A DNA stretch of 64,000 nucleotides, from positions 248,001 to 312,000 of the forward strand of contig WPIO01000043.1 of the NCBI GenBank assembly GCA_009760855.2, read 5' to 3'. The notes beneath the pieces were generated by a model. The model had not been told where the DNA came from, did no database searches, and saw only the letters and a list, made by a program, of their open reading frames with translations. Within the stretch, counting starts at the first letter, position 1; each line of letters starts with the position of its first letter. A program made the position numbers and the translations under genes. Source of the stretch: Cristatella mucedo (lineage: Eukaryota; Bryozoa; Phylactolaemata; Cristatellidae). This document shows, piece after piece, positions 50-8,274 of this stretch.

Positions 50-120
50 GTGTGTGTGTGTGTGTGTGTGTGTGTGTGTGTGTGTGTGTGTGTGTGTGTG
101 TGTGTGTGTGTGTGTGTGTG
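50..120. repeat. (TG)n microsatellite before exon copy 1
   Basis: An uninterrupted TG run ends exactly 42 bp before the 3' splice site of the 222-bp exon at 163. The same spacing is seen at the other two exon copies. Long frames through it (poly Val-Cys or Thr-His) are artefacts of the repeat. Confidence 0.97.
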
Positions 121-162
121 CCAAGCTTCTGTCATACTGCAACGTTCGGCCTCTCTCTGCAG

Positions 163-384
163 AACTGGATCATAGTGCAAACATACCTTGCTGTCGAGAT
201 TCCTGATCAGCTGGAAGAGGACCCTGAGATTGCTGCCAGGAGGCTGGAAGAGAAAGAGATTCTTCAAGCAGTAGAACAAATTGCGTTTGGGGAGCAGCTG
301 GAAAATGAGAATAATGAGATTGGTGATGGTGGTGATTTGCGAACCCATGCACATGAGGAAATGAGCACAGAAACATCTGGTGAT
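163..384 (+). CDS. Internal exon, acidic protein, copy 1 of 3
   Basis: I do not recognise the protein. The exon is bounded by a strong acceptor (pyrimidine-rich, CTCTCTCTGCAG) and a donor GTATGT. It is 222 bp, 74 codons, phase 0 at both ends, with no stop. The encoded stretch starts NWIIVQTYL, then has a Glu-rich amphipathic segment (LEEDPEIAARRLEEKEIL) that could form a helix or short coiled coil, then a Gly/Asp/Glu-rich tail ending ETSGD. Homologous exons of identical length sit at 3833 and 7821. Being symmetric, each copy can be included or skipped without changing frame. What is seen: conserved length, splice sites and open frame in three copies. What is inferred: that it is transcribed. 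A tandem-duplicated pseudogene remains possible. Confidence 0.55.
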
Positions 385-416
385 GTATGTACTGCCGTGT
401 GATTGTGTTAATGACA

Positions 417-573
417 AGTTGTATGTCGAGCTGGTTTGGTCTAGCGGTTAAGGTGCTCGCCCCGATCAAGGTCTGACTGAGGTCGTGGGCTCGAGCCCCG
501 AGGCACATGTGAAGCGCCTGAATATAGATTAGGTTCTCTTGGGGTGCTATATAAATGAATTATATTTTTTTAA
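417..573 (+). mobile_element. SINE1 (tRNA-derived), insertion in unit 1
   Basis: A tRNA-like head has an A-box-like TGGTCTAGCGG and a B-box-like GGGCTCGAGCC. It is followed by a tRNA-unrelated body (GTGAAGCGCCTGAATA...GGTTCTCTTGGGGTGCTATATAAATGAAT) and an A/T-rich end. The flanking sequence in the duplicated units at about 4075 and 8065 lacks it, so it inserted into unit 1 after the duplication. Related copies lie at 1570, 43075 and, reversed, 47255. Confidence 0.85.
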
Positions 574-904
574 TATCGTCCGAAATCATGCACCATGCTT
601 GCCAGTGGCATGCAATCAATTGAAGTTGCAATTAAGTGCAATGAGTTAAACCGGTGAGATTAGAGGCTGCTTGTTGGCAACTGCTATAGAAAGCTTAACT
701 CTTTAAAGCACCGTCTTTCCGATGCTCACCTAAGGCAAGGGTGGTGCTCATAATGATAATAATAATGCTAAAATATTCGTAATTTGCCGTCTGGGAGGCG
801 AATCTGGCTACAGCATTTCATGGCTGCGATCTGTCTTGGTATGCATGTACGGCTTTTTACTGTGCCTGCTTTTGGCTGTTGTTATCACCAATCGTTTGTT
901 TATG
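574..904. other. Intron-like sequence, no gene seen
   Basis: The left part (to about 630) is the continuation of the duplicated unit seen at 4105 and 8090 (motif CATGCACCATGCTTGCCAG). The rest shows no ORF, splice pair or repeat that I recognise. Confidence 0.6.
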
Positions 905-1005
905 CTTTCTAGCCATCATTTTTAAAACGCCTAGACAGAGATTCAGTCCTCTGAAGCGCTTTGTAAATTATTTATTATTACCATTATTATTATTAGTATC
1001 TCTTT
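905..1005 (+). mobile_element. LINE-B/SINE tail fragment
   Basis: AAACGCCTAGACAGAGATT...GAAGCGCTTTGTAAATTA followed by ATT repeats matches the 3' tail that recurs throughout the window on LINE family B. A weaker counterpart sits at about 5990-6060 in the next unit. Confidence 0.55.
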
Positions 1006-1009
1006 GCCG

Positions 1010-1565
1010 GAACTTCACATATGCTGGAAGTGTCGTTCGGTTAGTTAAGGTGGATGCTATTGCAGAGAGAAGACGCAAACCCCGGACGATCCATATGGGC
1101 AGAGCATTATCTGTGAGGAGCTAGATGTTTCTTTCGCACTGAACTGTCAAGCCGGTGTGGGGTTGTGAGCTGCAGGCATGTGAGGTGCAAGCCCTAGTGA
1201 GTTGCGGGTGCTAGTGAGTAGCTGGTGCTAGTGAGGTAGGGGTGCTAGTGAGCTGGGGGCACTAGTAAAGTGTGGCTCTAGTGGGGTAAGCTCGCTTGTA
1301 ATTTGGGGGCTAGTGAGGTATATGGTAGTGGTATGCAGGCTAGTGAAATCTGGTGCCTTGCGATCAGGCTCTTTGAGCTATTAGTGTGTTAGTTGCCTAC
1401 TTGTGCTATGTAGTTGTTGCTGCGATTCTTTTGCTTCGGTGCTGTAATGTTGTTTTTATTATTTGGAATCGGCTGATATGGTTTCTGGTTTAGTGGGCTT
1501 GATTGACAGACTAAGTTTGCTGAGCTGTAACCATGCAATAGCCCCACAACAGAGAAAGCTATCAG
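1010..1565. repeat. Duplicated block, unit 1
   Basis: Alignable by eye with about 6065-6995: both contain CATATGCTGGAAGTGTCGTT, CCATGTGGGCAGAGCATT, CAAGCCGGTGTGGGG, a minisatellite, and CTACTTGTGCTATG. The block shows that unit 1 and unit 2 come from one tandem duplication. It holds no convincing exon. Confidence 0.7.
1180..1365. repeat. GCTAGTGAGGTGGGG minisatellite
   Basis: Imperfect tandem repeats of roughly 15-20 bp around the core GGTGCTAGTGAGGTAGGG. A diverged, differently arranged version occupies 6225-6440 in unit 2, so the array was present before duplication and has since changed in copy number. Confidence 0.75.
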
Positions 1566-6060: not shown

Positions 6061-6064
6061 CTTT

Positions 6065-7625
6065 CTATTAACTTCACATATGCTGGAAGTGTCGTTTGGT
6101 TAGTTTAGACTTGTGCTATATCAGAGCGCAGAAGCAAATGCCTGACGATCCATGTGGGCAGAGCATTGGCTGTGAGGAGCGAGATATTTCTTTCGCACAG
6201 CACCATCAAGCCGGTGTGGGGTAGTGAGCTGCAGGCTAGTTTGGTACCGGGTAGTGAGCTGCAGGCCCTAGTCAGGTATGGGCGCTAGTCAGGTAGTGGT
6301 GTTAGTGAGGTAGGGGTGCTAGTCAGGTGCAGGCGCTAGTGAGCTGATGGCGCTAGTGAATTGCAGTCGCCAGTAATGGGCTAGTGAGGTGTATGGTAGT
6401 GAGATGATTGCTAGTGAATTTTTCGCTAGTGACGTGCAATGCTTCAAGATATCGGTTAGTCATGCTGCAGCCACATTTTTGTAGCAGTATAAAATAGGTC
6501 ACAGCTTGATTTGAGACCAGACTAATTTGGTTGTAATCAGAATGTTGTATCTAATTTAAGAGTTTACTACTTTTACAAGTGGTTTCCCATGATAGTACAC
6601 CAAGGTACTAATATCAATGCTGTCGACGGTGACCGTCTCAATTCCTGCTTACTTAGTTGCTTCTAATTTTTAAGAAATTGTGTATCTTTTTCTTTAAAGT
6701 AATTGGAACTTCAAACTCCTTGTGGAATAGGCGATGCAGTCGCTCTGATATCAAGTCGGTCGGTCATCCGTCCGTGTGTATGCCAAGCTGATCAGAGATC
6801 AGGTGCTGTGAGCTGTTTGTCTGTTAGTTGACTACTTGTGCTATGCAGTTAGTGCTACGATTCTTTTGCTCGGTACTCTGCCGTTTTATCATCATTTGAA
6901 GTCATCTAATATGCTTTCTGCTCCAGTGGGCTTGATAGACAGACTGCGTATACTTCACTGTAACCATGCAATATCCCCGCGACAGAGAAAGCTATCGACA
7001 ACATTTGTAGGTCGCTTTTGGATTGCCTAGCGAATGCTAGTGGTTCGACTAACAATTATGAGCACATGGGGCAGTTGCAAGGTGGTTCCGGTTTGCTGGC
7101 TGTGACTGGGAGGCTAGATTGAGTGGGCCCACTGCAAACAAGGCACAAATATCTTAGGGCTATAGACTTTGCTAGCTCAGGCGATTGGTTACTATGTGCA
7201 TTTAGTTTTACTGATGCGAGTAAACAAATGAGGTTTTCAATATGTATTGCTTGCTACTATTCGAATCAGAAGCAGTGCTAAGGCCTCATAAACAAGCTTC
7301 CCATGTAGCTCAACGTTGCAAGTTCCGCCAGTGGCAAAGGTCACCGGAGACCCCCCTGGCACCAGCCTGCTGTTAATAGCTGCAGAATTTGACAGGTAAA
7401 GTTCTGCTAGCGCTTTATGCGTTCCTTGCACCTAGCTCAGTCTGTGAATGTGCTCGGTGCCATAAATTCTTCCATACAATTCACCTCTCGTGCTTGCCCA
7501 GGAAAGAAGCAACACTTGCAGGCTGACACTGTGCACGTCTCTCCAGTTCTTGATGTTTTTTTGTTTAATTAGCACACTGCCACTAAATATTCCAGCTTGC
7601 TTTGTTTGTAGCAAATATGAACTGC
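6065..7625. repeat. Duplicated block, unit 2
   Basis: Counterpart of 1010-2340, without the SINE1 insertion. It contains the diverged minisatellite (6225-6440) and the LINE-B tail start at 7626. No exon is supported. Confidence 0.7.
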
Positions 7626-7643
7626 CTAGAAAGAGATTAAGTT

Positions 7644-7778
7644 TTGTGTGTGTGTGTTTGTGTGTGTGTGTGTGTGTGTGTGTGTGTGTGTGTGTGTGTG
7701 TGTGTGTGTGTGTGTGTGTGTGTGTGTGTGTGTGTGTGTGTGTGTGTGTGTGTGTGTGTGTGTGTGTGTGTGTGTATG
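7644..7778. repeat. (TG)n microsatellite before exon copy 3
   Basis: Almost pure TG repeat ending 42 bp before the third 222-bp exon. Confidence 0.97.
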
Positions 7779-7820
7779 CCAAGCTTCTGTCATATTGCAA
7801 CGCTCGGCCTCTCTCTGCAG

Positions 7821-8042
7821 AACTGGATCATAGTGCAAACATACCTTGCTGTCGAGATTCCTGATCAACTGGAAGAGGACCCTGAGATTGCTGCCATGAG
7901 GCTTGAAGAGAAAGAGATTCTTCAAGCAGTAGAACCCATTTCGTTTGGGGAACAGCTGGCAATGGAGAATAATGAGATTGTTGATGGTGGTGAATTGCGA
8001 ACCCATGCACATGAGGAAATGAGCACGGAAACATCTGGTGAT
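7821..8042 (+). CDS. Internal exon, acidic protein, copy 3 of 3
   Basis: 222 bp, phase 0-0, acceptor CTCTCTCTGCAG, donor GTACGT, no stop. It differs from copy 1 mostly in the second half (for example QIAFGEQLENE versus PISFGEQLAME). The preceding interval lacks the 30- and 96-bp exons, because the LINE-B tail at 7626 is joined directly to the TG tract. Product unknown; see copy 1. Confidence 0.55.
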
Positions 8043-8187
8043 GTACGTACTGACTAGTGGTTGTGTTACTGACAAGTTTTTTGTAGTTCGAAATCATGCA
8101 CTATGCTTGCCAGTGGCATGCAATCACAGCAGCAGTGAGTAGATGGCTTAGTGGAAAAACGTCGCTTTGTTTTTGCATATTCTGCAG

Positions 8188-8274
8188 GTTCCTCATGTGT
8201 GCAGGTGTAGATGGGCTCACTTGTGTTTGTGTGTGTTGAGCAGTGCGTATATGAGTCAGAAATCTACCTTATGA
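8188..8274 (+). CDS. Candidate terminal exon after copy 3 (frameshifted)
   Basis: Same acceptor context (CATATTCTGCAG then GTTCCTCATGTG) as 5409, in phase 0 with exon copy 3. A 2-bp difference in a short TG-rich stretch shifts the frame, so it ends after 28 codons and loses the hydrophobic tail. It is either an alternative C-terminus or a decayed exon. Confidence 0.28.
   Translation, partial: VPHVCRCRWAHLCLCVLSSAYMSQKSTL

What the first reader, a model, noticed from the sequence alone, without database searches (positions are those of the whole stretch)
50..8274. Three tandem copies of a 222-bp symmetric exon, each 42 bp downstream of a long UG-repeat tract
All three copies have the same length, phase 0-0, matching splice sites and no stop, and each is preceded at exactly the same distance by a (TG)n tract of very different length (about 71, 390 and 135 bp). 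UG tracts next to a 3' splice site are known from CFTR exon 9 to bind TDP-43 and set the exon inclusion level. Here the arrangement is triplicated, so exon choice among near-identical cassettes could be tuned by repeat length. That this gene uses it is inference.
Basis: partly seen in the sequence, partly recalled or inferred. Interest (0 to 1): 0.78.

Follow-up and report, generated by a model that had tools for sequence, protein, structure and literature searches.

The report
Triplicated exon beside expanded TG repeat
In an unnamed invertebrate genome a piece of gene holding a protein-coding exon and a long TG repeat was duplicated in tandem, so the matching layout of the three copies comes from shared descent; whether the repeat controls use of the exon is possible but untested.

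Summary
Three 222-bp copies (163-384, 3833-4054, 7821-8042) are open, phase 0-0, AG/GT-flanked, and follow TG tracts of 71, 394 (interrupted) and about 131 nt by 42 nt. The equal spacing is shared descent: the exons sit in tandem units of about 3.7 kb, the first reaching about 3 kb upstream of the window. The exon is very probably real coding sequence: nine relatives lie on other contigs of the same genome, 8 of 9 keep the frame, and open frames in nine aligned copies are unlikely under neutrality. None of those nine relatives has a pure TG run over 8 nt within 300 nt upstream, so the long tract is particular to this locus. Copies are patchily homogenised, and unit C lost about 1 kb up to the tract's edge. 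The genome encodes TDP-43, so the proposed control is possible; nothing here tests it: no RNA data, host gene not found, tracts all above known TDP-43 and pUG-fold sizes. Best reading: microsatellite expansion at a short TG/CG-rich site, tandem duplication, gene conversion. Interest modest; a useful natural length series.

The parts
50..120 (+). TG tract A, 71 nt, pure
   Evidence: TRF; sequence
163..384 (+). exon gamma, copy A, 222 nt, phase 0-0
   Evidence: frame kept in relatives
3397..3790 (+). TG tract B, 394 nt, interrupted
   Evidence: TRF; longest pure run 86 nt
3833..4054 (+). exon gamma, copy B
7645..7775 (+). TG tract C, 131 nt by TRF (TATG continues to 7778)
   Evidence: TRF
7821..8042 (+). 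exon gamma, copy C (donor GTACGT)
121..162 (+). 42-nt linker A between tract and exon; copies differ by 1-2 nt (copies B 3791-3832, C 7779-7820)
3197..3292 (+). probable exon beta of unit B (96 nt, phase 0); in-frame ATG 6 nt before its AG-defined start; unit A copy lies upstream of the window at -166..-71; absent from unit C
   Evidence: relative with open frame and ATG in p copies, in-frame stops in two q copies
3038..3067 (+). tentative exon alpha of unit B (30 nt); unit A copy at -325..-296; not found in relatives
   Evidence: tblastn reached beta only
640..4141 (+). tandem unit B (unit A runs from about -3092, upstream of the window, to about 620)
   Evidence: self-comparison
6006..8756 (+). 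tandem unit C with its downstream flank (8128-8756 matches 5348-5955)
7643..7645 (+). junction in unit C where about 1 kb (homologue of 2359-3394, with alpha and beta) is missing, at the 5' edge of the TG tract
   Evidence: 1715-2358 matches 6998-7643 and -2307..-991 matches 6328-7644
4142..5347 (-). repeat insertion in the intron after copy B (many related copies in the region)
431..570 (+). short interspersed repeat after copy A (also 1571-1707 and 43073-43215)

Best explanation
A protein-coding exon of a fast-evolving multicopy gene family had a short TG/CG-rich stretch just upstream of its 3' splice region. At this locus that stretch expanded into a TG microsatellite, and the segment (upstream intron, beta exon, tract, linker, gamma exon) was duplicated in tandem to three units. 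Fixed spacing and matching splice sites are inherited from the one ancestor; tract lengths diverged by ordinary microsatellite turnover. Later exchange (gene conversion) kept patches around the exon alike, and a deletion ending at the tract's edge removed about 1 kb from unit C. Shown: homology, open frame, relatives without the tract, patchy identity, the deletion. Inferred: gene conversion as the cause of the patches, order of expansion and duplication. An effect of the tract on splicing through TDP-43 is possible but is not needed to explain the sequence.
For: Multi-kb homology among units. Nine related exons on three other contigs (C162 x5, C187 x3, C653 x1), with splice signals and intron flanks alignable to gamma; longest pure TG run within 300 nt upstream is 4-8 nt in 9 of 9. 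Three of the nine carry a repeat-like sequence instead at that place (q187_53, L041, L042). Frame: 9 of 9 copies aligned are open in one forward frame and no other of the six frames is open in all nine; neutral simulation kept all nine open in 0.03-0.6% of runs. Homogenisation: gamma 13/222, 20/222 and 13/222 against alignable introns 261/1485, 316/1836 and 332/1633 (Fisher 1.8e-06, 1.4e-03, 1.2e-08); A-B alpha-beta intron 4/129; A-B synonymous change 1 in 47 sites against 17.6% in introns (P 0.0012). Over longer time gamma is not slow: dN and dS to the relatives are about 0.4-1.0.
Against: On the 3' side the alike patch ends near the exon end for A-C and B-C (8/42 and 15/87 differences just after it), which selection on the exon would also give. 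Three tracts persisting over 17-20% intron divergence might hint at selection on the tract, although conversion could have copied it. The host gene's other exons were not found, so 'exon of a larger gene' rests on splice signals alone.
Confidence: 0.72

Rival explanations
1. The tracts act as UG-repeat splicing silencers (or pUG structures) bound by TDP-43, and their lengths set how often each near-identical exon is included.
For: Sense-strand TG tract 42 nt before each exon; TDP-43 N-terminal domain at 3 places over the curated cut-off and an RRM1 piece matching human TDP-43 at E 5e-08; in humans pUG repeats of 12 or more are reported as enriched near splice sites (PMC12276007, passages). The 42-nt linkers differ by 1-2 nt, so tract length is the main difference next to the exons.
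Against: No transcript data. Nine relatives lack the tract. All tracts exceed one TDP-43 footprint and a pUG fold several-fold. The tract does not adjoin the pyrimidine stretch. Symmetric exons need no choice.
Confidence: 0.12
2. The units are separate small tandem genes, not cassettes of one gene: beta carries the start codon, gamma is the second and perhaps last exon, and the TG tract lies in the only intron; unit C, without beta, is a fragment.
For: An in-frame ATG opens the beta frame in units A and B and in p relatives; a stop follows within 6-30 nt after gamma in the 9 copies checked; relatives are themselves spread as tandem copies tens of kb apart.
Against: A GT with G at +5 stands at the end of gamma in 9 of 9 copies, as expected for a donor; a stop soon after a donor is expected in an intron. 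Beta has in-frame stops in q187_53 and q162_68 (sequence) and was not found before p162_87. No conserved poly(A) signal including the window copies was seen.
Confidence: 0.3
3. The three copies are non-coding debris of a duplicated region.
For: dN is about equal to dS in many comparisons (A-B 0.072/0.022, A-C 0.050/0.103, B-C 0.104/0.067); no Pfam match and only weak PDB hits (E 0.18 and 0.78); introns align between relatives about as well as the exon; 1 of 9 relatives is frameshifted.
Against: Open frame in 9 of 9 aligned copies with neutral expectation 0.03-0.6%; within the p group most comparisons show few amino-acid changes (dN/dS 0-0.2 in 5 of 6 pairs, 0.86 in one).
Confidence: 0.1

Closest known systems
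CFTR intron 8 (TG)m(T)n and exon 9 with TDP-43 (PMC12171016, passages; PMC12697283, passages)
   Same: Sense-strand TG tract upstream of a 3' splice site; polymorphic-type microsatellite; TDP-43 present in the genome.
   Different: Here the tract is 42 nt from the exon with a separate pyrimidine stretch, is much longer, and stands before three tandem copies; effect on splicing unknown.
AVPR1A DupA/DupB: tandem duplication of GT-microsatellite-containing blocks in primates (PMC2483724, passages)
   Same: Tandem duplicates each with its own diverged GT microsatellite, and a history of duplication, deletion and gene conversion.
   Different: There it is a 350-bp block in a 5' flank, no exon; here multi-kb units with a coding exon.
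Tandem exon duplications (PMC9013439, abstract)
   Same: Near-identical tandem exons of the same length and phase.
   Different: Use of the exons (together, alternatively, mutually exclusively, or as separate genes) is unknown here.
pUG RNAs near splice sites (PMC12276007, passages)
   Same: Each tract holds at least 12 UG repeats and lies near a 3' splice site.
   Different: Invertebrate genome; folding not tested.

Membership tests
UG-tract/TDP-43-controlled exon (CFTR exon 9 type) | sense-strand UG tract upstream of the 3' splice site | tested here: met
UG-tract/TDP-43-controlled exon (CFTR exon 9 type) | tract adjoins a short polypyrimidine tract | tested here: not met
   42-nt linker with its own pyrimidine stretch lies between; so it is not filed as this type
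UG-tract/TDP-43-controlled exon (CFTR exon 9 type) | organism has TDP-43 | tested here: met
   PF18694 at 3 places over cut-off, RRM1 piece
UG-tract/TDP-43-controlled exon (CFTR exon 9 type) | TDP-43 binds and inclusion depends on tract length | not testable with these tools
   no RNA or binding data
Tandem exon duplication | adjacent homologous exons of like length and phase on one strand | tested here: met
Tandem exon duplication | copies lie in one transcript | not testable with these tools
   host gene not found; separate-gene rival open
Mutually exclusive exons | exactly one of the set is spliced in | not testable with these tools
   222 nt is a multiple of 3, so joint inclusion keeps the frame
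pUG RNA near splice site | 12 or more UG repeats | tested here: met
   longest pure runs 71, 86 and 117 nt

The most novel reading that the evidence does not exclude
A built-in length series: three coding exons with almost the same 3' splice regions compete in one transcript, and the number of UG repeats before each, drifting quickly by microsatellite mutation, sets the mix of protein variants, so that isoform ratios would differ between individuals.
Probability: 0.05. Interest if true: 0.8.

Novelty: new member of a known kind. Interest (0 to 1): 0.25.

Why it matters
If the tracts do affect splicing, the locus is a natural experiment: three near-identical exons whose linkers differ by 1-2 nt but whose UG tracts differ several-fold, with nine homologous exons in the same genome that lack a long tract as controls. 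If they do not, it is a clear case where apparent triple regularity is shared descent, and where a TG tract marks the edge of a deletion and lies in a patch of homogenised sequence.

Tried and rejected
Three independent placements of tract and exon: rejected, multi-kb homology. Strong protein constraint as the only reason for exon identity: not supported (dN near or above dS; fast change against relatives). Pairing of the UG tract with a CA tract in the same introns: no CA run of 4 or more units on the + strand in -3092..8756. A known domain: 0 Pfam families for gamma A, B, C and for the alpha-beta stretches of both units at E up to 1. Host gene: stop-to-stop frames and exon candidates over the 60 kb upstream and the left part of the window and frames conserved between relatives gave mostly repeat-like matches and no clear further exon. 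A downstream exon candidate in the relatives lost its AG in some copies and is not clear in the window. Rfam and ARAGORN on the window: nothing. A yUnAy branch-point match in the linker: none in A, B or C, so the branch point is not placed. Literature: (listings) showed no paper on tandem exons each with its own UG tract; subscription papers are mostly not held.

Full report
What is there. The window is C376:248001-312000 of a 572-Mb assembly. Three 222-nt open stretches, AG|163-384|GTATGT, AG|3833-4054|GTATGT and AG|7821-8042|GTACGT, follow TG tracts of 71, 394 and 131 nt (TRF) at 42 nt (copy C: 42 nt to TATG at 7778, 45 nt from TRF's end). Each is 74 codons without stop. They differ at 13, 13 and 20 of 222 nt with no indel. 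A whole-genome DNA search with the first exon returned three matches, all here.

Why the spacing is the same. Self-comparison of 26.5 kb around the exons shows tandem units: A from about -3092 (upstream of the window) to about 620, B 640-4141, C from about 6006 to 8129, with 8128-8756 matching 5348-5955. A repeat of about 1.2 kb interrupts the intron after copy B and a short repeat that after copy A. The tract-linker-exon arrangement is thus one ancestral arrangement copied. In 269,000 bases counted, one other TG/CA tract of 40 nt or more was seen, so a single tract next to some exon is not remarkable in a genome of this size (inference).

Is the exon coding? A protein search with copy A found, besides the three, four weak places (E 0.18-0.9); a search with one of these found nine places on C162 (5), C187 (3) and C653 (1), none with a stop inside the match. 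Six were read in full and three in 601-base pieces. Eight of nine keep the frame; C162:111205 has a one-base frameshift. Lengths are 207 nt in the six read in full against 222 here, both whole codons. In nine aligned copies (six relatives and the three) one forward frame is open in all and no other frame is; simulated neutral change, with branch lengths set by me from rough distances, kept all nine open in 0.03-0.6% of runs. dN/dS is low in 5 of 6 p-group pairs (0-0.2; the sixth 0.86) but near 1 between groups and 3.3, 0.49 and 1.56 among A, B, C from very few changes. So: coding, fast-evolving, no known domain.

The tract in the relatives. At the homologous place the relatives have a short TG/CG-rich stretch (for example GGTGTGTTTGTGTGTGCGCG) or, in three of nine, a repeat-like sequence with no TG at all. 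The longest pure TG run within 300 nt upstream is 4-8 nt in 9 of 9, against 71, 86 and 117 nt here. The long tract is therefore a feature of this locus. The family does not need it.

History among the copies. Alignable introns differ by 17.6% (A-B), 17.2% (B-C) and 20.3% (A-C), whereas gamma differs by 5.9, 9.0 and 5.9% and the linker by 1-2 of 42 nt. The A-B intron between alpha and beta differs by 4 of 129, the A-B unit start by 22 of 538. Synonymous change in A-B gamma, 1 in 47 sites, is below the intron rate (P 0.0012; B-C 0.028, A-C 0.03). Since gamma is not slow against the relatives, patchy homogenisation by gene conversion is the likeliest cause (inference). Against this, the patch ends near the 3' end of the exon in A-C and B-C (8 of 42 and 15 of 87 just beyond), as selection on the exon would also give. 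Intron segments were taken only where BLAST aligned, so intron divergence is a lower bound. Unit C lacks the homologue of 2359-3394: identity runs to 7643 and the tract starts at 7645, so a deletion ended at the tract.

Upstream exons. Beta (3197-3292; unit A -166..-71) is 96 nt, phase 0, with an in-frame ATG two codons before it; p relatives have an open, alignable frame starting with ATG, two q relatives have stops there, and it was not found before p162_87. Alpha (3038-3067) is tentative. Because beta may be a first exon and a stop follows gamma within 6-30 nt in the nine copies checked, the units could be separate small genes. The GT with G at +5 kept in 9 of 9 copies favours gamma having a donor. 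The rest of the host gene was not found.

Could the tracts control splicing? The needed protein exists: TDP-43 N-terminal domain at three places, with an RRM1 piece at one of them. Published passages give 5.5 dinucleotides per TDP-43 RNA-binding domain (PMC12697283), 12 repeats per pUG fold and enrichment of pUG repeats near human splice sites (PMC12276007), and for CFTR a tract adjoining a short pyrimidine stretch (PMC12171016). Here the tract is set apart by 42 nt, all three tracts exceed those sizes, and the relatives lack it. I give it 0.12, and 0.05 to the bold form in which tract length sets isoform ratios.

Organism. COX1 on contig C688 reads well with NCBI table 5, which suggests a bilaterian invertebrate; this is my inference, and the species is not identified.

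Noticed in passing
C111:6937954-6938175(+), C111:6953914-6954135(-), C634:320098-320316(+): Three places encode the TDP-43 N-terminal domain, two of them about 16 kb apart in opposite orientation.
   Followed up: partly
C688:15615-16955(-): COX1 with TGA read as Trp and AGR/ATA fitting Ser/Met (table 5), and five further COX1-like pieces with stops on other contigs, perhaps nuclear copies.
   Followed up: partly
C162 and C187: Relatives of the exon lie in large segmental duplications, with stretches of up to about 7 kb at 94% identity some 54 kb apart on C187.
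   Followed up: partly
window coordinate -5189..-5010 (upstream of the window): A stretch of about 180 nt that matches dozens of places on C162 and C187, often head to tail.
   Followed up: no
window 11380-11741: Two near-complete head-to-tail copies of a 187-bp unit, 100% alike by TRF, so very recent.
   Followed up: no
window 4142-5347, 9479-10165, 39699-40184, 57605-58255: Copies of one repeat in both orientations, 83-89% alike, with frames that look like reverse transcriptase (recalled, not searched in a library).
   Followed up: no
window 24934-25428: A 164-residue frame that looks like a retrotransposon integrase (recalled, not searched in a library).
   Followed up: no
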